Assembly (NCBI GenBank): GCA_003137095.1
Contig: PLET01000071.1
Coordinates: forward strand, 1,455 to 65,454
DNA: 64,000 nucleotides
Direction of reading: 5' to 3'
DNA from: Gammaproteobacteria bacterium
GTDB taxonomy: Bacteria > Pseudomonadota > Gammaproteobacteria > Steroidobacterales > Steroidobacteraceae
Shown here: piece after piece, positions 2,327 to 28,825 of the stretch
Layout: each line of letters opens with the position of its first letter
Position numbering within the stretch: position 1 is the first letter of the stretch
Made by a program: the position numbers and the translations under genes
Notes under the pieces: model-generated
What the model was told of the DNA's origin: nothing
The model's database searches: none
Seen by the model: the letters and a program-made list of their open reading frames with translations, nothing else

Positions 2327-2352
2327 CGGTCGCGCCACGTAGATTCCCGTGC

Positions 2353-4569: not shown

Positions 4570-4863
4570 ATGACTCCAGAACGTACCCAAGCCTACAGTC
4601 GTGTTCTGAATACCCTTGACGAGCTCGGGCCGAGCAAGCTGCAGCCCGCGGAGCAGGAGCGCATCCGCTATGCAGCTGACAGTCTCATCTTCTGCGTTGA
4701 CATCCTCGAGGAGGACTCGACGCGGGACTCGCTCGAAGATACGGAGCTGCTCTGCGAGGTTCTCGTGGAGAGCGGTCGCTGGGAGCGGGTTACCGCGGAT
4801 CGGCTGATTGCCGACCTGCGCGCCTGCGGTCCGGCACTTCCGGCGGAACTTCAGGTCGCTTAG
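4570..4863 (+). CDS. small hypothetical protein (97 aa)
   Basis: A very good ribosome binding site (GAGGAGG, ending about 5 nt before the ATG) supports expression. The product is a soluble, acidic, helical 97-residue protein (MTPERTQAYSRVLNTLDELG...) with no motif I recognise, no signal peptide and no membrane segment. It contains a single internal cysteine pair region (LIFC, LLCEVL). It lies in a 570-bp gap between divergent and convergent neighbours, and a strong hairpin starts 5 bp after its stop. Function unknown. Confidence 0.7.
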   Translation: MTPERTQAYSRVLNTLDELGPSKLQPAEQERIRYAADSLIFCVDILEEDSTRDSLEDTELLCEVLVESGRWERVTADRLIADLRACGPALPAELQVA

Positions 4864-4867
4864 CGAA

Positions 4868-4900
4868 CCGGGGGTTGGCCGCATCGCGGTCAACCCCCGG
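4868..4900. terminator. strong bidirectional terminator-like hairpin
   Basis: CCGGGGGTTGGCCGC (4868-4882) pairs along its whole length with GCGGTCAACCCCCGG (4886-4900), leaving a 3-nt loop and one G-T wobble. It sits directly after the small gene's stop and 29 bp before the end of the convergent aldo/keto reductase, as expected for a shared terminator. No T-run follows, which is common in high-GC genomes. Confidence 0.7.
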
Positions 4901-4928
4901 CGAGCCCTCCTAACGCCCTGACCGGCTG

Positions 4929-5861: not shown

Positions 5862-5974
5862 GGTCCGATGATCGCAAACTTGTCTCGCGGTCCCATCCGC
5901 TCACGGCGACGGCGCGTCGCCAACAGCCTCGCCGGACCCCAGGCTTACAGCAAACAAACGGACGCGTTCCTAAA

Positions 5975-6009
5975 GTTCAAAAAGCTAGGTCGTAGTTAGG
6001 CTTTCGAAC
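5975..6009. promoter_or_regulatory. AT-rich imperfect hairpin in divergent intergenic region
   Basis: GTTC-aa-AAAGC (5975-5985) can pair with GCTTT-c-GAAC (6000-6009) across a 14-nt loop. It lies in an unusually AT-rich pocket between the divergent aldo/keto reductase and gtrA. A TATACT (6023-6028) just downstream could be a -10 box for gtrA. No convincing -35 box is seen. Confidence 0.3.
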
Positions 6010-6094
6010 TATTTACCCAAGCTATACTTAACCATTGCTGTAAGGCGACATGCGCCGGGCCGCGAGGAGCGGAATCAGCTAACCCCGTGAACTC

Positions 6095-6661
6095 TTGCTA
6101 CGTGAACGTCAACAGCGCTATCTGAACGCGTCCGCCGCCTTCATCCGCCGCCACCCATGGTGGCTGCGCGTGACGAAGACACCGTTCTCGGCCAAGGTCA
6201 CGAAGTACGCGGTCGGTTCCGTGATCGCGTTTGTCATCAGCACCGTCTTCTTCTACGCCTTCTACCTGGGAGGCGCACACACAGGGGTCTGCTCAGTCGC
6301 CGGGTTCGTCGGCGGAGCCGTTCCGAACTGGATCCTGAACCGTCGCTGGGCCTGGCAGCAGACCGGCCGTCCGCCCGCCAAGCAGCTGATCGCCTACGTG
6401 CTGGTCTCTGGGGTCGTGCTGCTCACGACCACGCAGGCGACTAAGTGGACCAACCACCACGTTGCCAATCACGTCGTCCAGCACTACGGCCTGCGGGGAC
6501 TCGTTGTGACCGCCGCCTACGTGGCGGTGACCGTAGTGCTGTTCTTCGCGAAGTTCGCGGTTTACGAGTTCTGGGTCTTCTCGGAGCGCAGTCGCGTCCG
6601 CGCTGCCTTGCGCTCCCTGATGAATGTCAGAAGGATTGCGCGGGCGAACCGCATTCCGTAG
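6095..6661 (+). CDS. GtrA family membrane protein
   Basis: This 188-residue protein has four predicted membrane helices (KYAVGSVIAFVISTVFFYAF, VCSVAGFVGGAVPNWILNRRWAW, LIAYVLVSGVVLL, LVVTAAYVAVTVVLFFAKFAVYEFWVF). The NWILNRRWAW and FWVF motifs are typical of GtrA. GtrA proteins are thought to move polyprenyl-linked sugars across the inner membrane for wall or surface polysaccharide decoration. The frame opens after an in-frame TAA at 6080, so the TTG at 6095 is the most likely start. A GAGGAG lies about 26 nt upstream. The adjacent family 2 glycosyltransferase is the expected partner, although on the opposite strand and overlapping by 100 bp. Confidence 0.85.
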   Translation: MLRERQQRYLNASAAFIRRHPWWLRVTKTPFSAKVTKYAVGSVIAFVISTVFFYAFYLGGAHTGVCSVAGFVGGAVPNWILNRRWAWQQTGRPPAKQLIAYVLVSGVVLLTTTQATKWTNHHVANHVVQHYGLRGLVVTAAYVAVTVVLFFAKFAVYEFWVFSERSRVRAALRSLMNVRRIARANRIP

Positions 6662-7413
6662 AGCAGGTTCGGACCCTTCTTGGTGAGGGTCGCGCCCTGT
6701 GGCCGGTCGCGCATCGTGGTTGCGACCTCAGAGATCTTGAAGCCGTTCATAGCTGTCGAGATCAGCAGCTCCGAAGTCTGATACTGGATCTGCTCGAGCT
6801 TCACTGTCTGCGTCACGATCGTGCGGAAGGCACGCATGCCTGAAGCCGGGTCGGTGATCCGCTGACGGATCAACGTGCTCATGACGAAGCCGAAGAAGAT
6901 CACTCCGGCGTGGCGCATCGGGTCGGTCGTCAGCTCCGTGCCGAGGCGGCGTGAGCCGTTGACGAAGTCGGCATTACCGGCGAGAATCGGCTCGAGCACA
7001 CGGTCAAACTCGGTCTCGTCGTACTGACCATCGGCGTCGGTGGTGGCGATGTACTCAGCGCCGCGCTTGAACGCGAGCCAGTAGCCGAGCATGAAGATCA
7101 GGCCCTGGCCGCGGTTGTGGGGGACGTCGCAGACCAGCGCGCCTGCGGCACGGGCTTCCTCGGCGGTGCGGTCATCGGAGCCGTCGACTACGACGATCAC
7201 TTCGACGGCCTTGCCGCCGATCTCGCGGGGGATCCCGCGGACAACGGCGCCGACGGTCGGTTCCTCGTTGTAGGCCGGGATAACAACGGCGATTGGCGCG
7301 CCCTCACCGGGAGGGCTGGTGGCGAAGAACTCGCGGACGGGCGCCTGTTCAACCAGCGGACGGGCGAGGATCTCCTCCTCAAGCGTGGTCGCGCCGGGCG
7401 TGGTGGCCGTCAC
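6562..7413 (-). CDS. family 2 glycosyltransferase (DPM/DPG-synthase-like)
   Basis: This 283-residue GT-A enzyme would transfer a sugar from a nucleotide donor to polyprenyl phosphate, supplying the GtrA neighbour. IAVVIPAYNEEPTVGAVVRGIP starts the fold. VIVVVDGSDDRTAEEARAAGA, HNRGQGLIFMLGYW and TTDADGQYDETEFDRVLEPI contain the DxD-type metal site. Helices near residues 160-185 and 255-270 may associate with the membrane. The GTG start overlaps the stop of a 14-codon leader ORF (GTGA). The last 33 codons overlap the 3' end of gtrA on the other strand. Confidence 0.85.
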   Translation of the reverse strand: MTATTPGATTLEEEILARPLVEQAPVREFFATSPPGEGAPIAVVIPAYNEEPTVGAVVRGIPREIGGKAVEVIVVVDGSDDRTAEEARAAGALVCDVPHNRGQGLIFMLGYWLAFKRGAEYIATTDADGQYDETEFDRVLEPILAGNADFVNGSRRLGTELTTDPMRHAGVIFFGFVMSTLIRQRITDPASGMRAFRTIVTQTVKLEQIQYQTSELLISTAMNGFKISEVATTMRDRPQGATLTKKGPNLLYGMRFARAILLTFIRERKAARTRLRSEKTQNS

Positions 7414-7454
7414 AGCTCACGCTCCGCTACTGCTCTCGTCTGTTTGTGACGCAT
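7410..7454 (-). CDS. 14-codon leader ORF translationally coupled to the glycosyltransferase
   Basis: On the minus strand AAAGGAGACCTAA precedes an ATG at 7454, an excellent ribosome binding site with ideal spacing. The ORF reads MRHKQTRAVAEREL and stops in the GTGA that also starts the glycosyltransferase. It is out of frame with that gene (offset 41 nt), so it is not simply an upstream start. It is too short for the ORF track. It could be a coupling peptide or a basic leader. Alternatively, a sequencing indel could have split an N-terminal extension. Confidence 0.45.
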   Translation of the reverse strand: MRHKQTRAVAEREL

Positions 7455-7732
7455 TTAGGTCTCCTTTGCTGATTGGCCGAAGCGGCACGGCGCTGACCGC
7501 TTGCTTGCAGCCCACTCAAACCGGCGCTCCCGACAAGCATCAACGTTGCGCTTCCGACTGGCAATTGCCTCAGCCCGGGCGTGCAGCCGCGTGCCTGCTG
7601 CATACCAGCGCGAAGTGCCATGTTATCGGGCCTTTAGAGAAATCGGGTGTCCCCATCCCTGTTCTTATGGCCGGTGCGAGGGCGCACTCGTCGCTCGCGC
7701 GAGTAACCGCGTCCCAGCCGGGCATGCGCGGG
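7455..7732. other. intergenic stretch with no recognised gene
   Basis: Between the glycosyltransferase leader and the end of the lipoprotein gene there are about 280 bp with no ORF in keeping with family or codon pattern. Apart from the ribosome binding site of the leader ORF (7458-7467) I see no clear promoter, hairpin or RNA gene. It should hold the glycosyltransferase promoter and the end of the lipoprotein transcript. Confidence 0.5.
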
Positions 7733-8257
7733 TTAGCTCAGGCAGGTCGTGATGCCGAGTTTTGTGAACTCGGCTTGGGCCTGGGTGGCTCGGGTGACGG
7801 CCAGTTGCGGCCAGATGGCCAGCTCGTTCATGTCGCGCGCCTTCTCGGCGGCTGCTGCACTCGTGTAGTGCGTCCTGAGTTTCGCCGACACGGTCACGAG
7901 ATCCTGTTCGGTGACCACGATGCTGAGGTAACGCCGGCTCACGTCGTGCATCAACTCCGCCAGGTGCGTCACTGTGGGTGCCAGCGGCGAGGCGGCGGAG
8001 ATGGTCGGCGTCAGCTTCAACAGCCGGGCTTGCAGATTCAGCACGGCGGCGCTGTCGGCGTTGGCAGCCGTGGTCACCGACGCTGCGCCAGCCGGCATGT
8101 TGATCGCTGCCAGCGGCGCGGTCGCGGCACAGACCTTCCGCATCGCCGCGACGAACGCGGTGTCGCCTGTCGGGTCCGGCTTCGGTAATGAGAGGCTGCC
8201 GCAGCCGGCCAATAGGGCGGTGACTATCAGTGCTACGACCGCGGTGGCAAAACGCAT
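7733..8257 (-). CDS. putative lipoprotein of unknown function
   Basis: From the ATG at 8257 the product is 174 residues with a lipoprotein signal peptide, MRFATAVVALIVTALLAGC, whose LLAGC is a clear lipobox. The mature part is helical and alanine-rich with one distal Cys pair (KVCAAT, ITTCLS) that might form a disulfide. It would be anchored outside the cytoplasmic membrane. The longer ORF-track start (8332) places 25 residues before the signal peptide and is unlikely. It is divergent from the GGDEF/HD-GYP gene, with about 105 bp between them. I recognise no domain family. Confidence 0.7.
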   Translation of the reverse strand: MRFATAVVALIVTALLAGCGSLSLPKPDPTGDTAFVAAMRKVCAATAPLAAINMPAGAASVTTAANADSAAVLNLQARLLKLTPTISAASPLAPTVTHLAELMHDVSRRYLSIVVTEQDLVTVSAKLRTHYTSAAAAEKARDMNELAIWPQLAVTRATQAQAEFTKLGITTCLS

Positions 8258-8362
8258 TTCGCGGAGTATGCCCAGACTCGCGCCGGGACGGCTTGGCCGA
8301 GCCACGCGGGCCGTCCCGGAGAGCGATTTCACTCAGCTTGGGTTTCTGCCGATTAAGAGAGG

Positions 8363-11119
8363 ATGAGCGGGAGTCGAATCAGCCAACGGATGGCATGGAT
8401 ATGCCTGGCTATCGCAGTTCCCCTGAGTGTCGCCGCCATGGCGCTCAGCAAGATCGATAGCGCTTGGGACGGCGGCTGGTGGGACGTCGCCTGGACGACC
8501 GCCGCGCTCGCCGCGACCGTCGGGACCGCTGCCGCCGCCGGAGTCGCGCTGCCGGCGAACCGCTTGCGCTGGAAGATCTGGACGGCGGCGTGCGCGTTCT
8601 GGCTCTTCGGCCAGATCGGGTGGAACGTCTTCGGCATCACCGGTTTCCCGACCTCACCCAACGTCGCCGACGCCTGTTGGTGGGCGTTTGCGGTGCTTGT
8701 GATCTTTAGTCTGATCCGTAGCCGCTCGGAGTCGCGGACCGTTCGGCTCGTGACGCTCGTGGAGGTCGTGCCGGTGGTGGCGGCAGCGATCTCACTGAGC
8801 CTGGCCGGCTTGTGGCACGACGCGGCCGTCTCCCCGTTGGCGCTCGCACCCAAGCTCTCCGCGCTCGTCTACCCGGGCGTCTACGTCGCCGCGGCTGTGG
8901 TGATGCTACAGGCGATGGTCAGTGGATCGCTGCGAACAAACCGCACGGCACCGTCAAGGTTCGTGCTCGCGGGCATGGCCGCGGAGGCGGTGGCATTCTC
9001 GCTCTGGAGTACGCAGCTGCTGCTGAACACCTACGTCCCTGGCGCGACGCTGCTAGATCCACTGTTCGTGGTCGGCTTGCTGGCGATCGCCGCCGGCGGC
9101 GTGCTGGCGGCGCGGATCCCGGAAGACGCGGTCGACCTGCACGAGCCGGCGAAACACGGCGGAGCGCTGCCCGCAACGCTGTTCCTGCTGCTATTGGCCG
9201 CCAACGTTGAAGCACAGATAAACCACGCAGCGATCGGGCCCGCTGATGCGCTGCGAATCGGCCTGCTCTGCTCTGGCGCCGCGCTGATCCTGCGTGGAAC
9301 CCTGCTCGAACGCCGCTTGCGGGAGATGCTCGGCCGCGAACGTGAAGCGCTGGCGGTGCTCGGTGAGCGCGAGACCGAGATGGCGCGCTTGAACGCGCAG
9401 CTCGTCGAGGATTCCCGCCGCGACCCGCTCACCGGCATGCGTAACCGCCGCGCGCTCTCGGACGACCTCACCGGCTTGGAAGCGAGCTTCAAGGAGGACG
9501 GAAGAAGGTTCATCCTCGCACTTTGCGACATCGATCACTTCAAGGCTTACAACGACCGTCTGGGACACCTTGCGGGCGACCAGGCATTGCGCGTGATCGC
9601 TGCCACGATCCGCGGCGCGATGCGACCAGGAGACATCGCCTATCGCTTCGGCGGCGAGGAGATGCTGTTGGTGCTTCGTGACCTCGATGAGGCTGAGGCG
9701 GTCACCGCCGCCGAGCGCATCCGCCTGGCAGTACGGGACGCCGCGATCCCGCACCCGGACGGGATCGACGGTGGAGTATCGATCACGATCGGCGTGGCGG
9801 GGGGCGATGGCGACTCGAGTGAAATGCTCGCGCGTGCCGACGCCGCGCTGTACGACGGCAAGCACGCAGGACGCAACCGCGTCGTTGCGGCGGCATCCGA
9901 CGCGCCGTCCTATGCGGCCGGCCGTCGACATCGGGTGGTTGAAGAGGTTGTGCCTCGCCACCTGCTGAGCATGCTCGCGGTTTCCCGCGAGGCCGCGTCT
10001 GGCCACGGCGAACAGTCTGTACTCGAGGCGCTGGCAGCGACGATCCGTTCCGAACTCTCCTTCCAGGTCGTTTCGGTCAACCTGTTGGACAGCGAGCGTC
10101 ACACACTGACCAACAAGGTCGTGCTCGGTGACGACGACTGCCGCGAGAAGCTCTTCGGAATCGTGGCTCCCTCGCAGGAGATCGAGGCGGTCATCGCGAA
10201 CCCTGAATTCCAGCGCCTTGGCGCCGCCTGGGTCCCCGCCGGTTCGCACCAGTGGGAGGGCGAGGAGTGGCTATGGACGCCCCACACGGCGGCGGTGCCG
10301 GGCGCCGACGGCTGGGACCCGGATGATTTCCTGCTGCTGCCGCTGCGCGCTCATGACGGCACGATTCTCGGCACCGTCTCAGTCGATCAGCCGGTCAGCG
10401 GCAGGCGCCCCGACGACGGGCAGCTCGCGCTGCTGATGGCGGTAGCTGATCACGCCGGGCTCGCGGTCGAGCAGAGCCGCCGCGAGGCCGAGCACTCGGA
10501 AGCGGTTCAAGAGCAGTCAACTGAGCTGCGGCTCGCCGCCGTGATGCTGCTGGCCGAGACCTTGGATCTCCGTGACTCCGGCACGGCTCGCCACTCGCGC
10601 ACCGTGGGCGTGCTCGCACGCCAGACCGCTGAAGCCCTTGAGCTGCCACCTGAGCGGGTCGAGCAGATCCACGCTGCCGGGGTGCTGCATGACCTCGGCA
10701 AGCTCGGGATCGCCGACGCGATCCTCTACAAGGCGGGACCGCTCGATGACCATGAGTGGCGTGAGATCCAGCGCCATCCGGAGATCGGCGCTCGAATCCT
10801 TGACCACGCCGGTCTTGGGACGATCGCCCGCTGGGTCCGCTCTCATCACGAGCGACTTGATGGGCACGGCTATCCGGACAAGCTCGACAGCGAACAGATC
10901 CCGCTGGAAGCACGGATCCTCGCCGTCGCCGATGCCTACGAAGCGATGACCGCCGACCGGCCCTATCGGACCGGTACGTCGACCGAGGCGGCCTGCGAAG
11001 AGCTGCTGCGATGCAGCGGCAGTCAGTTCGACCCCGTCGTGGTGGAGGCCTTCATCAGCGCCCTGGCCGCGGCCGGGACCCCAACCTCGGCGTTTGAAGA
11101 CGTGCCGGTCTCCGCCTGA
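8363..11119 (+). CDS. membrane GGDEF-GAF-HD-GYP cyclic-di-GMP signalling protein
   Basis: This 918-residue protein joins both halves of cyclic-di-GMP turnover. About 300 N-terminal residues form seven or eight membrane helices with a short coiled coil after them (ERRLREMLGREREALAVLGERETEM). A GGDEF domain follows (about 345-515) with DPLTGMRNRRAL, CDIDHFKAYND and FGGEEM, a functional-looking active site. Next is a GAF-like domain (530-690), then HD-GYP (715-895) with HDLGK, HHERLDGHGYP and DAYEAMTADRPYR. Both catalytic sites appear intact. It stands alone in its transcription unit. AGAGG abuts the ATG at 8363; the ATG at 8390 is an alternative. Confidence 0.88.
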   Translation: MSGSRISQRMAWICLAIAVPLSVAAMALSKIDSAWDGGWWDVAWTTAALAATVGTAAAAGVALPANRLRWKIWTAACAFWLFGQIGWNVFGITGFPTSPNVADACWWAFAVLVIFSLIRSRSESRTVRLVTLVEVVPVVAAAISLSLAGLWHDAAVSPLALAPKLSALVYPGVYVAAAVVMLQAMVSGSLRTNRTAPSRFVLAGMAAEAVAFSLWSTQLLLNTYVPGATLLDPLFVVGLLAIAAGGVLAARIPEDAVDLHEPAKHGGALPATLFLLLLAANVEAQINHAAIGPADALRIGLLCSGAALILRGTLLERRLREMLGREREALAVLGERETEMARLNAQLVEDSRRDPLTGMRNRRALSDDLTGLEASFKEDGRRFILALCDIDHFKAYNDRLGHLAGDQALRVIAATIRGAMRPGDIAYRFGGEEMLLVLRDLDEAEAVTAAERIRLAVRDAAIPHPDGIDGGVSITIGVAGGDGDSSEMLARADAALYDGKHAGRNRVVAAASDAPSYAAGRRHRVVEEVVPRHLLSMLAVSREAASGHGEQSVLEALAATIRSELSFQVVSVNLLDSERHTLTNKVVLGDDDCREKLFGIVAPSQEIEAVIANPEFQRLGAAWVPAGSHQWEGEEWLWTPHTAAVPGADGWDPDDFLLLPLRAHDGTILGTVSVDQPVSGRRPDDGQLALLMAVADHAGLAVEQSRREAEHSEAVQEQSTELRLAAVMLLAETLDLRDSGTARHSRTVGVLARQTAEALELPPERVEQIHAAGVLHDLGKLGIADAILYKAGPLDDHEWREIQRHPEIGARILDHAGLGTIARWVRSHHERLDGHGYPDKLDSEQIPLEARILAVADAYEAMTADRPYRTGTSTEAACEELLRCSGSQFDPVVVEAFISALAAAGTPTSAFEDVPVSA

Positions 11120-11205
11120 GCGATGCCTAGTAGGAGTGTCCTGCAGCGCCGCAGCTGTTCGTCGTAGCTGTAGAAGGCAATGCAAAACGGCGGAAGCGAG
11201 GCATC

Positions 11206-11961
11206 ATGAAGTACCTACTTTTCATCTGCGCTGACGGTGTCGCGGGAACACCGCAGGACGAGGCGACGGTCCGCGAGGGCATGCCCGGGTGGCTCGACGA
11301 GATGGATCGCCGGGGGATCCGTGTCTACGGGCACGCGCTGAAGCCGGTGGAGACCGCTACGACGGTACGCGTGCGTGGCGGCGAGACGCTGCTCACGGAC
11401 GGTCCCTTCGCCGAGTCCAAAGAGTTCATCGGAGGCTTTGACATTCTCGAGTGTGCGAACCTTGACGACGCCGTGGAGGCGGCTGCGCTGCACCCGCTCT
11501 CCTGGGTTCACAAGATTGAGGTGCGACCGTTTTACGTGGAGGAAATCGGTGGCGAGATGCAGCCGATCGCTCCGATCGAGGACGTCCGGCACGGTCAGCG
11601 GTTCCTGCTGCTGATGTGCCTGGATGGCATTCGCGCAGCGCCGGAGGTGGAGGAGGCCGTTGTCCGTGACAGCATGGCCTGGTACGAGGAACTGAAGGCA
11701 CGCGGCGTGGCCGTCTACGGCGCCCCGCTCAACCACGCGGAAACCGCCACCACCGTCAGGGTTCGCAACGGCGAGACCGTGTTGAGCGACGGTCCGTTCA
11801 CCGAGACCAAGGAGTTCATCGGCGGTTTCACGATCCTCGATTGCGAAGGCCAGGCCGAGGCTGTGGCGCTCGCCGCCAAGCACCCGCTGGCGTCGCATCA
11901 CATGGTCGAGGTGCGTCAGTTCGCTGGCCATGAGCTCGGCGACGGAGCGATCGGCGATTAG
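11206..11961 (+). CDS. tandem YCII/DGPF-domain protein
   Basis: This 251-residue protein is made of two copies of the DGPF (YCII-related) domain. Copy 1 begins MKYLLFICADG and contains LLTDGPFAESKEFIGGFDILEC. Copy 2 begins RFLLLMCLDG and contains VLSDGPFTETKEFIGGFTILDC. The copies share the ETATTVRVR-GET strand. Single-domain relatives of about 120 residues usually sit next to ECF sigma factor genes and have a ferredoxin-like fold of unclear function. No sigma factor lies nearby here. GCGAGG precedes the ATG at a good distance. The stop is 45 bp from the convergent hrpA stop. Confidence 0.82.
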   Translation: MKYLLFICADGVAGTPQDEATVREGMPGWLDEMDRRGIRVYGHALKPVETATTVRVRGGETLLTDGPFAESKEFIGGFDILECANLDDAVEAAALHPLSWVHKIEVRPFYVEEIGGEMQPIAPIEDVRHGQRFLLLMCLDGIRAAPEVEEAVVRDSMAWYEELKARGVAVYGAPLNHAETATTVRVRNGETVLSDGPFTETKEFIGGFTILDCEGQAEAVALAAKHPLASHHMVEVRQFAGHELGDGAIGD

Positions 11962-11994
11962 GAAGGGTTAGAGGGGACAGCATGTCCGCTAGAG

Positions 11995-12023
11995 CTGGCC
12001 GGTCGCCTACCGGCGCCCGGCCA
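11995..12023. terminator. GC-rich hairpin between convergent genes
   Basis: GCCGGT (11998-12003) pairs with ACCGGC (12009-12014), and an outer CTGGCC/GGCCAG pair (11995-12000 and 12018-12023) offers an alternative fold. It covers the hrpA stop codon and lies 34 bp after the DGPF gene, so it could serve both convergent genes. There is no T-run. Confidence 0.35.
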
Positions 12024-15000
12024 GGGCCTCGCGGACGCGCTTGACCGTCGCCCCGGGACGTACATGCGTACCTGGGGACAGCTGTGCCACGCGCAGCTCC
12101 TGGATCAGCCACATGACCTCCCAGCGTCCGGCGGCCTGAGCCTCCAGTGCGTGAATCGTCGCCATCTGCTGGGCGTCGGCGGAGATACGGGTCGGCAGCC
12201 GCTCGAGGCGCTGTCCGCTGGCAAGCAGGTAGCGCTCGACATCGTCAAGTCGCGCGAGTCCGGTCGGCGCCAGCATGCCGGGGTATACGAGGCGCCCGAG
12301 CTGGCGCGCGACATCTTCGCGTGCAGGCGCCAAGGCGGCGCTGGCCGGAAGCATGTCGAGCCGCGCCTGCACGTCTCGCGCAGCCTCAAGGATCCGAGCG
12401 AACGTGAGCACCACGTCGAGCGTCGTGGGTCGCACTTCACCCCGCGTGTGCTCGCGCAGTGCGGTGAACGCCTCCGCGTTCCACGCCGGCCCGCCGCCAC
12501 TTGTGATCAGCGCGTCCAGCGCTGCGTCTGTGGCGTCCTCAAGCACCGCTTCCAGGCTGCCGTGGGGTGCGAAGGTGAGCGCGAGCGTCAGCTGCGGTCC
12601 GAGCTGCCCAGTGACCCAGCGCGCGGGCGACGGGACAGTGAGACGCAACAGTCGCCGCGTGCCGCGAGCCATCACCACCGCCTGTTCACCCGCGGTCTCG
12701 CAGACTTGGATGCCGACGGCGTCGCCTTCATCGACGAGCGCCGGGAAGCCGCGCAAGCCGCCGGGTAGCTCGATCGTGCGCGGCAGCGGATTGGCACCGA
12801 ATTCGGTCATGCCGTGGCGCGCGAATGCCGGTAGGGCGTGCTCCAAGCGCGCCTTCAACGCCGGTCGCAGCTGATCGCGTAACGCGTCGAGAGACCGGCC
12901 CGAGGCGAGCACCGTGCCGTCCTCGTCCTCGATCGAGAAGGTCATTCGCAGGTGCGCGGGAAGATCGTCGAGCGACCAATCGGTGGCGTTGATACGCACT
13001 CCACGCAGCCGTTCAACCGCGCCAGCGAGGACCTCGAGCAGCGGTCCTGAGCGGGGCGTGATCTCAGCAAGCAGCGCGTCGGCGGCGTCGGGGATCGGGA
13101 CCAGGGGCCGGCGCAGCGGCTTTGGCAACGCACGCAGCAGCGTCTCAACGAGCTCTCGGCGGAATGCCGGCACCAGCCACTCGAAGTTCGTCTCTCGCAC
13201 CGCTCCGAGCGCGGCAAGCGGGACGTGGACCGTGACGCCGTCGGCTGCAGAGCCCGGGTCGAAACGGTAGGAGAGCGCGAACTCCAGCGCATCCTGCTTC
13301 CAGCGAGCGGGTCGGTCACGGTCACTGGCCGCGACGTCACCCTCGATCAGTACCTCCATCGGGTACTCGAGCAGCGACGGCTGGGCCTGCCGGGCGGTCT
13401 TCCACCAGCGGTCGAAATCGCGCCCGCTGACGATCTCCTGCGGTATCAGCGCCTCGAAGAACGCCGCCCGCGCCGCCTCGCTGGCCAACAGGTCGCGCCG
13501 GCGTGCACGTGCTTCGAGCGCCTCGACCTCCTCGATACGGCGCTCGTTCTCTGCCATGAACGCGTGTCGCTGGTCCCAGTCGCCCTCCACGAGCCCGCGG
13601 CGGATGAACAGCTCGCGCGCGGCCGCCGGGTCGATCCGTCCATACTGGACGGTTCGACCCCCGACGATCGGCAGGCCGTACAGCGTTACCTGTTCGGTCG
13701 CGACGACAGCGGCCCGGCGGCGGTCCCAGCGCGGCTCGCCGTATGAGCGCTTGACGAGGTGCTCGGCGAGCCCCTCAACCTGCTTGAGGTCGATCGCCGC
13801 GGCTGTTCTGCCCCACAGCCGGGTCGTTTCGACGAGTTCGGCGACCATCACCCAAGTTGGCCCGCGGCGCGCGAGCACCGAGCCAGGAAAGATCGCGAAC
13901 TTCGCGCCGCGCGCGCCGGTGTATTCACGGCTGCCACCGTCCTGCATTCCCAGGTGCGAGAGCAGCCCTGAAAGCAGCGCCGTGTGGATCTCAGGCGCGT
14001 CAGCGGGCGCCTCGTTGAGCGTTACTCCGACCTCGCTCGCCGCATCCTGCAACTGCGAGACGAGGTCCTGCCACTCGCGGATCCGCAGATAGTGCAGAAA
14101 CTCGGCTTTGCAGCGTTTGCGGGCCTGTGAGCGCGAGAGCTCACTTTCCAGCGAGCGCAGGTAGGTCCACAGGTTCAGGTACGCAAGGAAGTCCGACGAG
14201 CGGTCAGCGAAGCGGGCGTGAAGCTGGTCGGCTTGGCCGCGCTGCTCGGCGGGGCGCTCGCGTGGATCCTGGATGGAGAGTGCGGCAGCGATGACGGCCA
14301 CCTCGTGGGCACAGCCGAGCTTGTCTGCCTCCAGCACCATGCGACCGAGACGCGGGTCGATCGGCAGCCGCGCGAGCTTGCGTCCGAGCGGCGTCAGCGG
14401 TTCGGCGGCGTCGGGCTCGAGCGCTCGCAGCTCGTGCAGCAGCGCGACGCCGTCCCGGATCTGGCGGCGATCAGGCGGTTCCAGGAACGGGAACGCCTCG
14501 ATTTCGCCCAGCTCGAACGCGGCCATCTGGAGGATCACGCTCGCGAGGTTCGTTCGCAGCACCTCAGGGTCGGTGAACTCCGGCCGTGCGTTGAAATCGT
14601 CCTCGGAGTAGAGGCGGACGCAAACCCCGTCTGCGAGGCGCCCACAGCGGCCCTTGCGCTGGTCCGCCGATGCGCGCGAGATTGGCTCAACCGGCAGCCG
14701 CTGAACCTTCAACCGAGCGCTGTAGCGGGAGATCCGGGCAACTCCGGTGTCGACGACGCACCGTATCCCGGGCACGGTTACCGACGTTTCGGCAACATTC
14801 GTGGCGAGCACGACGCGGCGCTTGTGGGTCCGGCTGCTGCCGAAGACCTTCTGCTGCTCAGCGGCAGCGAGCCGCGAGTAGAGCGGTAACACCTCGACCT
14901 TCGGCCCAAGGCGCCCGCTGAGCAATTCCGCGGCATCGCGGATCTCGCGTTCACCCGAGAAGAACGCCAGCACGTCACCGTCCCGCTCGTCGAGCAGCTG

Positions 15001-15633
15001 CTCGACCGTGTCGGCCAGCGTGTCGAGCAGTTCCTCGTCTTCTCCCGGTGGTCGGTAGCGGACCTCCACCGAGTAGCTCCGGCCCGAGACCTCGATGATC
15101 GGTGCGCCGCCAAAGTGCTGGCTGAAGCGCTCGGTGTCGATCGTCGCGCTCGTGATGATCAGTTTGAGATCGGGTCGTCGCGGCAGGATGCGATGCAGGC
15201 AACCGAGCAGGAAATCAATGTTGAGCGAGCGCTCGTGAGCCTCATCGACGATCACCGTGTCGTAGCGGCGCAGAAGGGGATCCGAATTCAGTTCCGCGAG
15301 CAGCAAGCCGTCCGTCATGAGCACAAGGCGCGTGGCGCCGGAAACCTGATCGGCGAATCGCACGCGAAATCCCACGGTGCCGCCGACCGTCTGGGACAAT
15401 TCCTCCGCGATGCGCGCGGCCAGGGCTCGCGCGGCCACCCGGCGCGGCTGGGTATGCGCGATCAGACCGCGTGTGCCGCGGCCGATCTCCAGGCAGTACT
15501 GCGGCAGCTGTGTGCTCTTTCCCGAACCCGTCTCGCCGGCGACGATGACCACCCGGTGCTCGCGCAGCGCTGCGATGATGGCATCGCGTTTCGAGGCGAT
15601 CGGCAATCTGGGATCGCGCCTGAATTCATTCAC
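12007..15633 (-). CDS. hrpA: ATP-dependent RNA helicase HrpA-type (DEAH box), probably chimeric
   Basis: This 1208-residue DEAH-box helicase has Walker A GETGSGKST (33-41), DEAH (130-133), the SAT motif (ITSATI) and QRKGRCGR. An HA2/OB region and the long C-terminal DUF3418 region of HrpA follow. HrpA unwinds RNA; E. coli HrpA helps rescue stalled ribosomes and has about 1300 residues. The GTG start overlaps the mazG stop by 8 bp, so translation is probably coupled. The 5' end has the base composition of the right block while most of the gene looks like the left block. The reading frame is intact throughout, but the protein may be an artificial or recombinant fusion of two homologues. Confidence 0.85.
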   Translation of the reverse strand: MNEFRRDPRLPIASKRDAIIAALREHRVVIVAGETGSGKSTQLPQYCLEIGRGTRGLIAHTQPRRVAARALAARIAEELSQTVGGTVGFRVRFADQVSGATRLVLMTDGLLLAELNSDPLLRRYDTVIVDEAHERSLNIDFLLGCLHRILPRRPDLKLIITSATIDTERFSQHFGGAPIIEVSGRSYSVEVRYRPPGEDEELLDTLADTVEQLLDERDGDVLAFFSGEREIRDAAELLSGRLGPKVEVLPLYSRLAAAEQQKVFGSSRTHKRRVVLATNVAETSVTVPGIRCVVDTGVARISRYSARLKVQRLPVEPISRASADQRKGRCGRLADGVCVRLYSEDDFNARPEFTDPEVLRTNLASVILQMAAFELGEIEAFPFLEPPDRRQIRDGVALLHELRALEPDAAEPLTPLGRKLARLPIDPRLGRMVLEADKLGCAHEVAVIAAALSIQDPRERPAEQRGQADQLHARFADRSSDFLAYLNLWTYLRSLESELSRSQARKRCKAEFLHYLRIREWQDLVSQLQDAASEVGVTLNEAPADAPEIHTALLSGLLSHLGMQDGGSREYTGARGAKFAIFPGSVLARRGPTWVMVAELVETTRLWGRTAAAIDLKQVEGLAEHLVKRSYGEPRWDRRRAAVVATEQVTLYGLPIVGGRTVQYGRIDPAAARELFIRRGLVEGDWDQRHAFMAENERRIEEVEALEARARRRDLLASEAARAAFFEALIPQEIVSGRDFDRWWKTARQAQPSLLEYPMEVLIEGDVAASDRDRPARWKQDALEFALSYRFDPGSAADGVTVHVPLAALGAVRETNFEWLVPAFRRELVETLLRALPKPLRRPLVPIPDAADALLAEITPRSGPLLEVLAGAVERLRGVRINATDWSLDDLPAHLRMTFSIEDEDGTVLASGRSLDALRDQLRPALKARLEHALPAFARHGMTEFGANPLPRTIELPGGLRGFPALVDEGDAVGIQVCETAGEQAVVMARGTRRLLRLTVPSPARWVTGQLGPQLTLALTFAPHGSLEAVLEDATDAALDALITSGGGPAWNAEAFTALREHTRGEVRPTTLDVVLTFARILEAARDVQARLDMLPASAALAPAREDVARQLGRLVYPGMLAPTGLARLDDVERYLLASGQRLERLPTRISADAQQMATIHALEAQAAGRWEVMWLIQELRVAQLSPGTHVRPGATVKRVREALAGRR
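14900..15300. other. probable junction between two genomes (inferred)
   Basis: This is my estimate of where the sequence changes character inside hrpA. The helicase motif region (DEAHERSLNIDFLL, around 15200-15250) is conserved enough to supply a shared assembly overlap. AATT occurs once between 12007 and 14900 but four times between 14900 and 15633 and twelve times from there to 18560. Gene content also switches from actinobacterial-looking to gammaproteobacterial. The exact base cannot be placed by eye. Confidence 0.5.
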
Positions 15634-16420
15634 CGCGCTTCATTTCTTGCCAAAGTCTCTCCTGGGCGTCCAGATCCAGGCTCTCGAAGGCAACGCCGCG
15701 CACGGCGGCCAGCGATTCCATGCCGCGAAAGCGGCGTTCGAACTTGGCGTTGGCGGCGCGCAGCGCCGCCTCGGGGTCGACATCGAGTTTGCGCGCCAGA
15801 TTCGCGGCCGCAAACAGCAGGTCGCCGATCTCCTCCAGCAGTGCCTGCGGGTCGGCGTCGCGGCCGGGAGCCGCGGCGGCGCGCACCTCCGCGAGCTCCT
15901 CGGCAACCTTGTCTGCGGCTTGGTTTGCCTGCTCGAAATCGAATCCGGCGCGAGCAGCCCGCTTGCTCAGCTTGCCTGCGCGCATCAGGGCCGGCAGCGC
16001 ACGCGGAACGCCGTCCAGATGACCGGCGAGGGCGCCCTGCGCCGCCGCCCCGCGCTCCTGCGCCTTGATGTCCTCCCAGATCTGCGACTGCTCGTCGGCG
16101 GTGAGCACCTTTCCGCCGCCGAACACATGCGGATGTCGGCGTATCAGCTTCTCGCAGATCGACGCGGCCACGGCCTCGAAATCGAAATAGCCGGCTTCGC
16201 CGGCCATCTGCGCGTGGAACACCACTTGAAACAGCAGGTCACCGAGCTCCTCCTGCAGATGCGGAAAATCCCCGCGTTCGGCGGCGTCGGCGACCTCGTA
16301 GGCTTCCTCGATGGTGTACGGGGCGATGCTCGCGCAGGTCTGTTCACGATCCCAGGGGCAGCCGCCGGCGCCGCGCAGTCGCGCCATGATGGCGAGCAGA
16401 TCCTCGAGGCGGGTGGTCAC
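15626..16420 (-). CDS. mazG: nucleoside triphosphate pyrophosphohydrolase MazG
   Basis: This 264-residue house-cleaning enzyme hydrolyses NTPs to NMP and pyrophosphate. It has the family length (E. coli 263) and two MazG repeats. The first has CPWDREQT, IEEAYEVADA and EELGDLLFQVVFHAQ, the metal-binding EExxE...ExxD pattern. The second has VAEELAEV and EEIGDLLFAAANLARKL. The GTG at 16420 is chosen because it matches the family N-terminus (TTRLEDLLAIMARLRGAGGCPWD). The 451-residue track ORF merely reads upstream in the wrong frame across the Nudix gene. It overlaps the Nudix gene by 4 bp upstream and hrpA by 8 bp downstream, which indicates one operon. Confidence 0.95.
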   Translation of the reverse strand: MTTRLEDLLAIMARLRGAGGCPWDREQTCASIAPYTIEEAYEVADAAERGDFPHLQEELGDLLFQVVFHAQMAGEAGYFDFEAVAASICEKLIRRHPHVFGGGKVLTADEQSQIWEDIKAQERGAAAQGALAGHLDGVPRALPALMRAGKLSKRAARAGFDFEQANQAADKVAEELAEVRAAAAPGRDADPQALLEEIGDLLFAAANLARKLDVDPEAALRAANAKFERRFRGMESLAAVRGVAFESLDLDAQERLWQEMKRGE

Positions 16421-17058
16421 GGGGTCTGCCGTGCCAGCAGCAGCCGCTGCAGGGTCATCAGCATGCCGGCGGTGGCACCCCAGATGTTGCGCTCGCCGTA
16501 GGGGATGTCGACCACCTGCAGACTGACCGGGCCGATCTTGCGGAGCCGCGACTTTTGATTCGCGGCATCGAACAGAAAATCCAGGGGCACCTCGAAGGCA
16601 TCGCGCACCTCGGCTGCATCGAGTTCGAGATGGTAATCGGGGGTCAGGAATCCCACCACCGGAGTCACGCGGAATCCCGTCACGACGAGGTGATCGGGCA
16701 GATAACCCGCGAATTCCACCGCGCCCGGCTCGAGTCCGATCTCCTCCTGTGCCTCGCGCAGCGCAGCCTGCCAGGCATCGGCATCCTGCGGTTCGATGCG
16801 GCCGCCCGGAAAGCTGATCTGGCCGGCATGGTCCTTGAGGGTGGCGGCGCGCTCCGTCAGAAGTACGGTGAAGCCGGATGTGCGTTCGATCAGCGGCACC
16901 AGCACGGCGGCCGGGACGCGCCGCGCCGGCAGCGCCGCCCGCACGATCGCCCGCACGTCGGGCGCCGCCGCCGCCAGCCACTGCATGTCCTCCGACGCCG
17001 TCGACGGCCCCGGCTGCAGCGACTCGCGAATCAGGCTCCTGGAATACCGCGCAATCAT
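16417..17058 (-). CDS. CoA pyrophosphatase-type Nudix hydrolase
   Basis: This 213-residue Nudix hydrolase has the box GGRIEPQDADAWQAALREAQEEIGLE. The preceding LLTERAATLKDHAGQISFPGG matches the signature of the NudL/YeaB group, which cleaves CoA to 4'-phosphopantetheine and 3',5'-ADP. With MazG directly downstream in a 4-bp overlap, it forms a two-enzyme nucleotide-sanitising unit. The ATG at 17058 is followed by a short helical lead-in typical of the group. The fumC stop lies 17 bp downstream of that start on the same strand, so fumC may be transcribed into it. Confidence 0.88.
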   Translation of the reverse strand: MIARYSRSLIRESLQPGPSTASEDMQWLAAAAPDVRAIVRAALPARRVPAAVLVPLIERTSGFTVLLTERAATLKDHAGQISFPGGRIEPQDADAWQAALREAQEEIGLEPGAVEFAGYLPDHLVVTGFRVTPVVGFLTPDYHLELDAAEVRDAFEVPLDFLFDAANQKSRLRKIGPVSLQVVDIPYGERNIWGATAGMLMTLQRLLLARQTP

Positions 17059-17074
17059 CAGGGCATCGCCGCGC

Positions 17075-18472
17075 TCAAGATCCGGAATCCTTGATTCCGC
17101 CCTGCGTCAGCCCCAAAGGATCCAACAGACGGCGCAACTCCGCCACGTCGAGATCGGTCATCTGCGCGGCGACCTCCAGAACGGGCCGCCCCTCGGCATA
17201 GGCCCTCTTGGCAATGGCCGCGCCCTTTTCATAGCCGATGACCGGATTCAATGCCGTGACCAGGATGGGATTGCGCGCGAGCGCAGCGCCCAGACGTTCA
17301 GTGTTCACGCTGAATCCGGCGAGCGCATGCTCGGCAAGGTTGCGCGCACCGATGGCGAGCAGTTCGATGCTCTGCAGAAGATTGTGGGCGATGACCGGCA
17401 GCATGACGTTCAATTGGAAATTGCCGGCCTGCCCCGCAATGGTGATGGCTGCATCATTGCCGATGACCTGCGCTGCGATCATCGCCACCGATTCGGGCAC
17501 GACCGGATTCACCTTGCCCGGCATGATGCTGCTGCCGGGCTGCAGCGCCGGCAGGGCGATCTCGCCGAGACCGGCCAGCGGTCCGCTGTTCATCCAGCGC
17601 AGGTCGTTGGCGATCTTCATGAGGCTGACGCCGACGACCTTGAGCTGTCCCGACAATTCCACCGCGGTATCCTGGCTCGAGAGGGCCTCGAAGTAATTGC
17701 CGCTGGGTACGAAGGCGACACCGGTGTGCGCTGCCAGATGCCGGGCAAATGCCGCACCGAATTGGGGTCGCGCATTGATGCCGGTGCCCACCGCCGTGCC
17801 GCCCTGCGCGAGGGCATGCAGGCGCGGCTGCACGCCGCGCAGACGCTCCCGTCCGGAGTCGATCTGGGCCTTCCAGCCGCCGAGTTCCTGTGCCAAGGTC
17901 AGCGGCATCGCATCCATCAGATGGGTGCGGCCGGTCTTTACCACCCCGGCGAGCGCCGGAATTCTCTGCGCCAGAACCTCGCTCAATCGCGCCAGGGAGG
18001 GCAGCAATTGCTCCTCGAGCAACAGCGCGGCGGCGACGTGGATCGCCGAGGGGATCACGTCGTTGCTGCTCTGGCTCATGTTGACGTGATCGTTCGGATG
18101 CACCGGAGCCGACAAGGCACGGCTCGCCAGGGTCGCGATCACCTCGTTGGCGTTCATATTGCTGCTGGTGCCCGAGCCGGTCTGGAAGACGTCCACGGGA
18201 AATTGCTCATCGTGGCGGCCGTCGGCCACCTCGTCCGCGGCCGCCTGAATGGCCGCGGCCAGCTGCGGCGCCAGATCGTGCAATTCGGCGTTCGCGCCGG
18301 CTGCCGCATGCTTGATCAGACCCAGCGCACGGATGAAGGCCCGCGGCATCCGCAGGCCGCTCGGCGGAAAATTCTGCACCGCGCGCTGCGTCTGCGCGCC
18401 CCACAGCGCCGCCTCCGGCACTTCGAGCGGCCCCAAGCTGTCATGCTCGACGCGATATCCCGGTGTCGTCAT
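17075..18472 (-). CDS. fumC: class II fumarate hydratase
   Basis: This 465-residue TCA-cycle enzyme interconverts fumarate and malate. It carries the superfamily signature GSSIMPGKVNPV, the TGSGTSSNMNANEV substrate loop and the KTGRTHLMDAMPLTL segment with the catalytic His. The ATG at 18472 (MTTPGYRVEHDSLGPLEVP) matches the family N-terminus and has GGAG 9 nt upstream. The ORF-track start adds 28 non-homologous residues and overlaps purB. It is divergent from purB, another member of the same superfamily, across a 74-bp gap that must hold both promoters. Confidence 0.95.
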   Translation of the reverse strand: MTTPGYRVEHDSLGPLEVPEAALWGAQTQRAVQNFPPSGLRMPRAFIRALGLIKHAAAGANAELHDLAPQLAAAIQAAADEVADGRHDEQFPVDVFQTGSGTSSNMNANEVIATLASRALSAPVHPNDHVNMSQSSNDVIPSAIHVAAALLLEEQLLPSLARLSEVLAQRIPALAGVVKTGRTHLMDAMPLTLAQELGGWKAQIDSGRERLRGVQPRLHALAQGGTAVGTGINARPQFGAAFARHLAAHTGVAFVPSGNYFEALSSQDTAVELSGQLKVVGVSLMKIANDLRWMNSGPLAGLGEIALPALQPGSSIMPGKVNPVVPESVAMIAAQVIGNDAAITIAGQAGNFQLNVMLPVIAHNLLQSIELLAIGARNLAEHALAGFSVNTERLGAALARNPILVTALNPVIGYEKGAAIAKRAYAEGRPVLEVAAQMTDLDVAELRRLLDPLGLTQGGIKDSGS

Positions 18473-18546
18473 CGCGCCATCTCCGGTGAATTGAGGTTGA
18501 TTGCGGTAATATTCGGATTCTATCATCCCAGGGGCCAGCCACTTCG

Positions 18547-19917
18547 ATGTCGACACGGGTCTTGGACGCTCTCTCGCCGTTGGACGGTCGCTATGCGGGC
18601 AAGCTCGCCTCGGTGCGCGGCGTGTTCAGCGAGGCCGGATTGATGCGCGAACGGGTGCGTGTGGAATGCGCATGGCTGTTGGCGCTTGCCTCGGGCCCGG
18701 CCGCCGCCGCCCTGGCTCAGCTGCCGCACGAGGCCCGCAGCTGGCTCGCCGCGATGTCGAAAGATCCGGCCGCAACCGATGTCGCCGCCATCAAGGAAAT
18801 CGAGTCGCGCACCAATCACGACGTCAAGGCGGTCGAGTATTGGATCCGCGCGCAATTGACGTTGCGCGGCGCCGCCCCGGCACAGCTCGAATGGGTGCAT
18901 TTCGGCTGCACCTCCGAGGACATCAACAATCTGGCCTACGCCCTCATGCTGAAGGCCGGGCGTGGGCGCATCATACTGCCGGCGCTCGACCGGATCGGCG
19001 CCCTGCTTGATGCGCTGGCGCATCGCCATGCCGCCGTCGGCATGCTCGGGCGCACGCATGGGCAGCCCGCGACGCCCACCACGGTGGGCAAGGAGCTCGC
19101 GAACGTCGCCGCGCGCCTTCATATGCAGCGCAGCGCCATCGACAAAGTGGAGATTTACGGCAAGATCAACGGCGCAGTGGGCAATTTCAACGCGCACGTG
19201 GCGGCGCTTCCCGACATCGACTGGCCGGGCTTCAGCGCGGCCTTCGTCGAGTCCTTCGCCATCCGCTCCAACGCCTACACCACGCAGATCGAGCCACACG
19301 ATTGGATGGCCGAATACTGTCATGCCATCATGCGCGCCGACACCGTGCTGCTGGATTTTGCGCGCGACATGTGGAGCTACATTTCGCTGGGCTATTTCAA
19401 ACAGCGGATCATCGAGGGCGAAGTGGGCTCCTCCACCATGCCGCACAAGGTCAATCCCATCGATTTCGAGAACGCCGAGGGAAACCTGGGGCTCGCCAAC
19501 GCGCTGTTCGCGCATTTCGCCGACAAGCTGCCCGTCTCGCGCTGGCAGCGCGACCTGACCGACTCCACGGTGCTGCGCAATGTCGGAGTGGCGATCGGGC
19601 ACGCCGCCCTAGCCTATCAATCCATTGCAGCGGGCATCGAAAAAATCGATCTCGACGAGGCGCGGCTGCGCGAGGATCTGGACCGGGCGTGGGAGGTGCT
19701 GGGCGAGGCCGTGCAGACCGTCATGCGCGCGCACGGCCTGCCGGATGCCTACGACCGCCTGAAGGCGTTCACCCGCGGCCGCGCGGTGGATCGCGCTGCG
19801 CTGCACGAGTTCATCCTCTCCCTGCAGCTGCCGCCGGCGCAGACGGCACGCCTGCTCGAGATGACACCGGGCAGTTACCTCGGACTCGCGGCGACGCTGG
19901 CGCGCAACAGACCTTGA
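18547..19917 (+). CDS. purB: adenylosuccinate lyase
   Basis: This 456-residue enzyme releases fumarate from adenylosuccinate and SAICAR in purine synthesis. LSPLDGRYAGKL at the N-terminus, GRTHGQPATPTTVGKEL with the catalytic His, and GSSTMPHKVNPIDFENAEGN are diagnostic of the proteobacterial PurB form. A CAGGGG about 11 nt before the ATG may serve as ribosome binding site. Its product fumarate is the substrate of the divergent fumC, a pleasing but possibly accidental pairing. Confidence 0.96.
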   Translation: MSTRVLDALSPLDGRYAGKLASVRGVFSEAGLMRERVRVECAWLLALASGPAAAALAQLPHEARSWLAAMSKDPAATDVAAIKEIESRTNHDVKAVEYWIRAQLTLRGAAPAQLEWVHFGCTSEDINNLAYALMLKAGRGRIILPALDRIGALLDALAHRHAAVGMLGRTHGQPATPTTVGKELANVAARLHMQRSAIDKVEIYGKINGAVGNFNAHVAALPDIDWPGFSAAFVESFAIRSNAYTTQIEPHDWMAEYCHAIMRADTVLLDFARDMWSYISLGYFKQRIIEGEVGSSTMPHKVNPIDFENAEGNLGLANALFAHFADKLPVSRWQRDLTDSTVLRNVGVAIGHAALAYQSIAAGIEKIDLDEARLREDLDRAWEVLGEAVQTVMRAHGLPDAYDRLKAFTRGRAVDRAALHEFILSLQLPPAQTARLLEMTPGSYLGLAATLARNRP

Positions 19918-19956
19918 GCATCGCGAGCGCGACGGGCGTCGCGAAACGTGACACAG

Positions 19957-19972
19957 TTGGTACAGCGCTTGC
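19957..19972 (+). promoter_or_regulatory. sigma-54-like promoter
   Basis: TTGGTACAGCGCTTGC matches the RpoN consensus (TGGCAC-N5-TTGC) at nearly every informative base, with GG and GC exactly 10 nt apart. A start about 12 nt after the GC would give a leader of some 35 nt for the gene at 20018. No enhancer-binding regulator gene lies nearby, so a chance match is possible. Confidence 0.35.
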
Positions 19973-20017
19973 GGCCCTGACGGTAGTATCACGTCGAGAT
20001 TCACACGGCGGGACGCT

Positions 20018-20566
20018 ATGGCGGGAAGTTCGGACGAGCGGTCGAAGGCGGCGGCGGACAATGATCCGGCTGCCGAAGGCCAACCGACGAGTTCCAGGAC
20101 CATATTAAGTACAATGCCGGAGGTGCGCGAGGCCAGCCTCAAGGTGGCCCGGTCGGCGCAGCGGCTGCTGTCGATATTCACGCCGGATCTCGAACCTCTC
20201 ATCTATGGCGAGGACCCGTTTCTCGAAGCCGTCAAGCGCCTGGTACTGGCACGCTCCTATGCAAAGGTGAGGGTGCTGCTCGCCGATCCGTCGCGCGCGA
20301 TGGTCGACAACAACCGCTTTCTCGCGCTCGCGCGCCGTCTGACCAGCTGCATCGACCTGCGCGCGATGAGTCCGGAGTATCCGGCCAGCGCCGGCGCGTT
20401 CATCATCGCCGACGACAAGGCGGTGGTTTACCGGCTGCAGGCCGATCGATGGGACGGCGTGGCGGACATGAACGACCCGGTCGGCGTGCGGCGCTATCTG
20501 AATTTCTTCGACGAGGTGTGGCAGACCAGCATGCAGGAATCCCAGATGCGGCAAATGCTGATGTAG
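20018..20566 (+). CDS. DUF7931-like, phospholipase D-fold-like protein of unknown function
   Basis: This 182-residue protein has a disordered charged N-terminus (to about residue 35) followed by a compact domain: ASLKVARSAQRLLSIFTPDLEPLIY, KVRVLLADPSRAMVDNNRFLALARRLTS and GAFIIADDKAVVYRLQADRWDGVADMNDP. The order resembles the DUF7931 family, which recalls a phospholipase D-like half-domain without the HKD motif. No catalytic His-Lys-Asp set is visible. It lies 35 bp upstream of mnmA and may be transcribed from a sigma-54-like site. Family assignment is from memory; the role is unknown. Confidence 0.65.
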   Translation: MAGSSDERSKAAADNDPAAEGQPTSSRTILSTMPEVREASLKVARSAQRLLSIFTPDLEPLIYGEDPFLEAVKRLVLARSYAKVRVLLADPSRAMVDNNRFLALARRLTSCIDLRAMSPEYPASAGAFIIADDKAVVYRLQADRWDGVADMNDPVGVRRYLNFFDEVWQTSMQESQMRQMLM

Positions 20567-20589
20567 CCGCCGGCCGGTCGCGTCGCCGG

Positions 20590-20595
20590 TATAAT
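20590..20595 (+). promoter_or_regulatory. -10 box TATAAT directly upstream of mnmA
   Basis: A perfect TATAAT lies 6 nt before the mnmA ATG. If used, the transcript would start at or near the start codon (leaderless). No good -35 hexamer lies at 16-18 nt, so support is limited to the -10 match and its placement in the short gap. Confidence 0.35.
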
Positions 20596-20601
20596 CGGCG
20601 C

Positions 20602-21774
20602 ATGTCCCAGCCATCCCCTCCCCTGGCTCGATATCCCGAACCGCAATCGGCGGGCACCGTCATCGTCGGCATCTCCGGCGGCGTCGATTCCGCGGTGGCC
20701 GCGTTGCTGCTGTGCCGGGCCGGCTACACCGTGCAGGGACTGTTCATGTCCAATTGGCAGGATGAGGACGCCTACTGCACGTCCGCCGCCGATTTTCAGG
20801 ACGCGCGCCGGGTGTGCGCTACACTGGGAATTCCGCTACATCGTGCGAACTTTGCCGCTGAATATCGCGAGCGGGTGTTCGCGCATTTTCTCGACGAATA
20901 TGCGGCAGGCCGCACGCCGAATCCGGACGTGCTGTGCAACCGTGAGATCAAATTCGGCGTTTGCCTCGATTATATGCGGCGGCTGGGTGCGGCGTGGATC
21001 GCCACCGGCCATTACGCCCGCATCGAGCATCAAGGCGGTACCCGGCTGCTCAAGGCAGTCGACGGGGCGAAGGACCAGAGCTATTTCCTGCACGCGGTGA
21101 CGCCGCAGGCGCTCGCCCGGACTCTGTTTCCCCTCGGTCGGCTGCACAAGCGCGAAGTGCGCCGGCTGGCCCATGCGGCGGGATTGGCGGTGTTCGACAA
21201 GCCGGACAGCACCGGGATCTGTTTCATCGGCGAGCGGCCTTTCCAGGAATTTCTCGGCCAGTATCTGCCGCCGTCGCCGGGTCCCGTCGAGACCGCGGAC
21301 GGACGCATCATCGGGGAACATCGGGGACTGCCTTTTCACACCCTGGGCCAGCGCTCGGGACTGGGACTCGGCGGGCTGCCCGGCGCCGCGGCGGCGCCCT
21401 GGTACGTCGCCGGCAAGGATGTGGCGCGCAATGCGCTGATCGTCGTGCAGGACCAGAACCACCCGCTGCTGCTGTCGGATGCCTTTGACGTCGCGCAGCT
21501 GCACTGGCTGGGAGATGCGGCGCCGGCCGGCGCGCGGATTGCGTGCGCAGTCAAGACTCGCCACCGCCAGCCCGACCTTGCCTGCCGGTTCATCATGGGA
21601 CACGGCATGCAGGCTCGCATCCTCCTGAACCGGCCGGCGCGGGCGGTGACGCCCGGTCAATACGCCGTGCTCTACGACGGTGAGCGCTGCATCGGCGGCG
21701 GGGTCATCACCGGACGATCCAACTCGGATTTGCCAATCGAATATAATCGCCGATTTGCGGCGGAGGGATCATGA
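20602..21774 (+). CDS. mnmA: tRNA-specific 2-thiouridylase MnmA
   Basis: This 390-residue enzyme thiolates U34 of tRNA Lys, Glu and Gln at the wobble position. [18 protein letters not shown] is the ATP-pyrophosphatase P-loop. [35 protein letters not shown] (first catalytic Cys) and [17 protein letters not shown] (second catalytic Cys) are all present. The ATG at 20602 fits the family; the track ORF begins inside the preceding gene. The stop overlaps the acnA start by 4 bp (ATGA), so the two are co-translated. Confidence 0.96.
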
Positions 21775-24458: not shown

Positions 24459-24466
24459 AGGGCGCC

Positions 24467-28128: not shown

Positions 28129-28136
28129 TTGCACAT

Positions 28137-28790: not shown

Positions 28791-28825
28791 ATCGGCCGCG
28801 GAGGGCGCCCGCGGCGCGGCCCGGT

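What the first reader, a model, noticed from the sequence alone, without database searches (positions are those of the whole stretch)
12007..15633. Two genomes appear joined inside hrpA
Left of about 14.9 kb the genes look actinobacterial; right of about 15.3 kb they look gammaproteobacterial. By eye AATT occurs about 8 times in the first 14.9 kb but about 16 times in the next 3.7 kb. The switch falls within hrpA, where a conserved helicase core (DEAHERSLNIDFLL) could act as a shared assembly overlap. The hrpA frame stays open, as expected for a join between homologues. An assembly chimera is the simplest reading; homologous recombination or a large transfer is the alternative.
Basis: partly seen in the sequence, partly recalled or inferred. 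Interest (0 to 1): 0.75.

Follow-up and report, generated by a model that had tools for sequence, protein, structure and literature searches.

The report
Two bacteria misassembled inside hrpA
The window is an assembly error: a piece of an actinobacterium's genome was glued to a gammaproteobacterium's genome at a 23-letter stretch that both share inside the helicase gene hrpA, so it is not a natural gene fusion or transfer.

Summary
HrpA lies on the minus strand (15633 to 12007). Residues 1-121 are gammaproteobacterial: 71-78% identical to species of the window's own genus, 59-61% to Actinobacteria. Residues 130-1208 are from an actinobacterium of the Solirubrobacterales: 73-79% identical, against 36-40% to gammaproteobacteria.

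The join lies within 15248-15270. Those 23 bases are also exactly the last 23 bases of another contig of the same genome bin, C44 (9940 bases), and occur nowhere else in it. On C44 the rest of the native gammaproteobacterial hrpA runs off the contig end at that point. C44 plus window 15271 onward gives an unbroken HrpA of 1232 aa, 61-67% identical end to end to same-genus relatives. It also restores the gene order those relatives carry unbroken (uvrC ... aldehyde dehydrogenase - hrpA - mazG - nudix - fumC - purB - mnmA - acnA).

The independent tetranucleotide change point is 15271-15321. The AATT counts (8 against 16) are exact. Contig C3 bases 1-16701, which include window 1-15247, are foreign and should be cut off. 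Reads were not available; a real recombination is not strictly excluded but would need several coincidences.

The parts
15248..15270 (-). join: 23 bases common to the two source genomes (RRYDTVI plus part of V of HrpA); the misjoin lies somewhere inside them
   Evidence: Identical to the last 23 bases of contig C44 (9918-9940); these are the only two places in the genome bin, even allowing 2 mismatches. The next base to the left differs.
1..15247 (.). foreign part, from a member of the Solirubrobacterales (Actinobacteria); it reaches the contig's left end 1454 bases outside the window
   Evidence: Tetranucleotide log-odds favour the left composition in every full 1-kb block up to the join. HrpA residues 130-1208 are 73-79% identical to Solirubrobacterales. 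The acyl-CoA oxidase and YCII proteins match Solirubrobacter or Conexibacter far better than same-genus gammaproteobacteria.
12007..15247 (-). C-terminal part of an actinobacterial hrpA (residues 130-1208)
   Evidence: L004 79%, L005 76%, L006 74%, L007 73% identical; gammaproteobacterial relatives 36-40%.
15271..15633 (-). N-terminal 121 residues of the native gammaproteobacterial hrpA
   Evidence: 71-78% identical to seven same-genus genomes, 59-61% to Solirubrobacterales.
15626..16480 (-). mazG, nucleoside triphosphate pyrophosphohydrolase, native neighbour of hrpA
   Evidence: NCBIfam PRK09562; lies next to hrpA in same-genus relatives.
15271..64000 (.). native gammaproteobacterial part (mazG, nudix hydrolase, fumC-like, purB, a conserved protein, mnmA, acnA and onward)
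   Evidence: Gene order from hrpA to acnA is kept in same-genus genomes G006, G007, G009, G018, G021 and others; genes named; no second composition break inside the window.
11206..11961 (+). protein with two YCII domains, actinobacterial side
   Evidence: PF03795 twice; 53% identical over residues 1-240 to Conexibacter sp. S30A1 and the L005 genome; only part-length matches in gammaproteobacteria.
299..2326 (+). acyl-CoA oxidase, actinobacterial side
   Evidence: PF22924 and PF01756; 54% identical, E 5e-211, in Solirubrobacter taibaiensis; best in six same-genus gammaproteobacteria is E 1e-9.
8363..11119 (+). GGDEF plus HD-domain signalling protein, actinobacterial side
   Evidence: PF00990 and PF13487; partial matches everywhere, best in Solirubrobacterales.

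Best explanation
The window is a chimeric contig of a metagenome-assembled gammaproteobacterial genome. The sample also held a member of the Solirubrobacterales. Both carry hrpA, and in the conserved stretch just before the DEAH box their DNA happens to be identical for at least 23 bases. The assembler followed the actinobacterial path into this shared stretch and came out on the gammaproteobacterial path. The true gammaproteobacterial path before that point was left as a separate contig, C44, which ends with the same 23 bases. Shown: the mosaic protein, the shared 23-mer at C44's very end, the intact native gene and gene order when C44 is put before window 15271, and the composition break at the same place. 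Inferred: that the step took place in an assembly graph rather than in a cell.
For: HrpA 1-121 is gammaproteobacterial and 130-1208 actinobacterial. The last 23 bases of C44 equal window 15248-15270, the only two places in the bin. C44 plus window 15271-15633 reads 1232 aa without a stop and is 61-67% identical to seven same-genus HrpA proteins, against about 41% to Solirubrobacterales. Same-genus genomes carry the C44 genes, hrpA, mazG, nudix and purB as one continuous stretch, e.g. L116, L118, L124. Composition change point at 15271-15321. Left-flank genes match Solirubrobacterales. Known actinobacterial and gammaproteobacterial hrpA genes share exact runs of 12-35 bases, several of them at this same YDT[IV]IVDEAHER segment. 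The genome is a fragmented draft of 129 contigs with 4.06% estimated contamination.
Against: No reads, coverage or assembly graph were available. Only one such join was found, and C3's outer ends do not overlap other contigs of the bin, so the assembler's k-mer length could not be inferred. Actinobacterial WhiB regulators are absent from the bin, so there is no broad actinobacterial contamination; this fits a single chimeric contig but does not prove it.
Confidence: 0.97

Rival explanations
1. Real transfer: at least 16.7 kb of actinobacterial DNA entered the gammaproteobacterial chromosome and recombined within hrpA, displacing the native part.
For: The hrpA frame stays open across the join, and a short identical stretch could serve as a recombination site.
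Against: The displaced native part (C44) is still in the bin and ends at exactly the last base of the shared stretch. Same-genus species carry the unbroken native order. The DNA left of the shared 23 bases is only 49% identical ungapped, too unlike for ordinary homologous recombination. The foreign part shows no mobile-element gene among those identified.
Confidence: 0.02
2. A genuine ancient mosaic hrpA in this lineage, kept beside a truncated native copy.
For: The genome bin holds two hrpA-like pieces.
Against: The second piece is cut by the contig end, not by a stop codon or deletion, and it complements the window's N-terminus exactly. The composition of the left part has not drifted towards the host. 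None of the same-genus relatives searched shows an actinobacterial-type HrpA.
Confidence: 0.005
3. Ordinary local variation in composition inside one genome.
For: GC content is about 65-68% on both sides.
Against: Tetranucleotide gain of 666 log units at the join, and opposite taxonomic affinity of the two parts of one protein.
Confidence: 0.005

Closest known systems
Chimeric contigs from metagenome misassembly (described in GUNC, PMC8201837)
   Same: Genomic fragments from two sources wrongly assembled into one contig.
   Different: Here the join can be placed to 23 bases inside one protein-coding gene that stays in frame, and the true partner contig (C44) was identified in the same bin.
ATP-dependent RNA helicase HrpA (TIGR01967)
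   Same: Both parents are ordinary HrpA proteins; the chimera still scores 1542 bits against a cut-off of 722.75.
   Different: The window's protein is a computational fusion of two orthologues and is not expected to exist in any cell.

Membership tests
Chimeric contig (misassembly) | Parts of one contig derive from different organisms | tested here: met
   Split affinity of HrpA and of the flanking genes.
Chimeric contig (misassembly) | Join at a sequence shared by both sources | tested here: met
   23 bases shared between the window and the end of C44.
Chimeric contig (misassembly) | The true continuation exists elsewhere and restores the expected gene and gene order | tested here: met
   C44 plus window 15271 onward gives the intact HrpA and the gene order of relatives.
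Chimeric contig (misassembly) | No reads support the join, or depth changes at it | not testable with these tools
   No reads or coverage held.
Horizontal transfer by recombination | Foreign DNA bounded by recipient DNA on both sides, or a mobile element or integration site | tested here: not met
   The foreign part runs to the contig's left end and none of its identified genes is an integrase or transposase.
HrpA helicase (TIGR01967) | Score over the curated cut-off, full-length match | tested here: met
   1542 bits against 722.75, profile positions 61-1232 of 1284; true of the chimera as it is of both parents.

The most novel reading that the evidence does not exclude
A genuine, recent recombination between an actinobacterial and a gammaproteobacterial chromosome within hrpA, present in part of the population alongside the native arrangement.
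Probability: 0.015. Interest if true: 0.7.

Novelty: not a real feature. Interest (0 to 1): 0.08.

Why it matters
It matters only as curation. 16,701 bases at the left of contig C3 do not belong to this genome and would give false cases of gene transfer and a false fusion protein if left in. C44 should be placed before window 15271. It is also a clean example of how a conserved helicase core can mislead an assembler, and of how to show this without reads.

Tried and rejected
Looked for a third contig starting or ending with the shared 23-mer, which would be the actinobacterial N-terminus: none in the bin. Tried to infer the assembler's k-mer length from overlaps at C3's other two ends: none. 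C44's left end lies in what looks by eye like a tRNA gene, so it breaks for another reason. Looked for wider actinobacterial contamination with WhiB: none. Looked for the left-flank genes beside hrpA in Solirubrobacterales loci: no conserved neighbours, so the donor's gene order could not be checked. The GGDEF-HD protein was too generic to tell the two sides apart strongly. The second composition break near the contig's right end proved to be an insertion-sequence-like stretch outside the window.

Full report
What was claimed.

Observation. hrpA is the minus-strand ORF 15633-12007, 1208 aa, and matches the HrpA model TIGR01967 at 1542 bits. GC content does not show the change, but tetranucleotides do. 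The best single change point over the whole 78,171-base contig is at window 15321, with 15271 practically as good. The gain is 666 log units, and every full 1-kb block before it favours the left composition.

Two parents in one protein. The window is bases 1455-65454 of contig C3 of a 4.74-Mb draft genome in 129 contigs. Aligned with homologues, HrpA residues 1-121 are 71-78% identical to seven genomes of the window's own genus and 59-61% to four Solirubrobacterales. Residues 130-1208 are 73-79% identical to those Solirubrobacterales (Conexibacter sp. S30A1 and three metagenome genomes) and 36-40% to the same-genus relatives. In 20-residue steps the preference flips between residues 101-120 and 121-140. 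Separate searches with the two parts give the same split.

The missing native half. The same genome bin holds another hrpA piece on contig C44 (9940 bases). It is open to the contig's last base. The last 23 bases of C44 are identical to window 15248-15270, and this 23-mer occurs nowhere else in the bin even with two mismatches. The base before it differs between the two contigs, and the 300 bases left of it are only 49% identical ungapped. C44's hrpA continued by window 15271-15633 reads 1232 aa without a stop and is 61-67% identical over its length to the same-genus HrpA proteins.

Gene order. In same-genus genomes (for example L116, L118 and L124, from G009, G007 and G021) the order is uvrC, intervening genes, aldehyde dehydrogenase, hrpA, mazG, nudix hydrolase, fumC, purB, a conserved protein, mnmA, acnA, without interruption. 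C44 carries the first half of this order and the window from 15271 the second. None of the genes in window 1-12000 is found near hrpA in those relatives; the only hits to those genes among the searched loci were weak HD- or GGDEF-domain matches in an actinobacterial locus. The acyl-CoA oxidase at 299-2326 is 54% identical (E 5e-211) to one in Solirubrobacter taibaiensis, and the best match in six same-genus genomes is E 1e-9. The two-domain YCII protein at 11206-11961 is 53% identical to full-length proteins in Conexibacter and a second Solirubrobacterales genome, with only partial matches in the same-genus genomes.

How the join arises. Known hrpA genes of these two groups share exact runs of 12-35 bases by chance and protein constraint, several at the YDT[IV]IVDEAHER segment. 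A de Bruijn-type assembler that enters this stretch from one genome can leave it on the other (general knowledge; misassembly producing chimeric contigs is described as one of the two principal errors in metagenome genomes, though rarer than mis-binning, in PMC8201837). That the native contig stops at exactly the end of the shared bases is what such a wrong path leaves behind. Which assembler was used and with what word length is not known.

Alternatives. A real transfer would require that the displaced native DNA still be present, that its contig end by accident at exactly the junction, and that recombination took place between sequences about half identical. The foreign part has no identified mobile-element gene and does not return to host DNA before the contig ends. 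The bin lacks WhiB, so it is not broadly mixed with actinobacterial contigs.

Verdict. Not a biological feature.

Noticed in passing
G000 contig C3 from about 76550 to 78171 (outside the window); L115 11600-13172: The contig's right end has a second, smaller composition break and holds an integrase-like fragment and an ORF that reads like an IS3-type transposase running off the end; a mobile element probably ends the contig there.
   Followed up: partly
L113 (G000:C44) 1-60: The left end of C44 looks like part of a tRNA gene by eye, a plausible repeat or attachment site at which assembly stopped; not confirmed with a tRNA finder.
   Followed up: no
L041 (JAJAYQ010000208.1), match 4142-7879: A contig labelled Spirochaetaceae (metagenome genome CAN_BIN15) carries an HrpA 52% identical to the actinobacterial-type protein; possibly another misassigned or contaminated contig.
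   Followed up: no
window 17075-18556: The fumarate-hydratase-like protein scores below the curated fumC cut-off (539 against 665) and just over the aspartate ammonia-lyase subfamily cut-off (511.6 against 510), so its name is uncertain.
   Followed up: no
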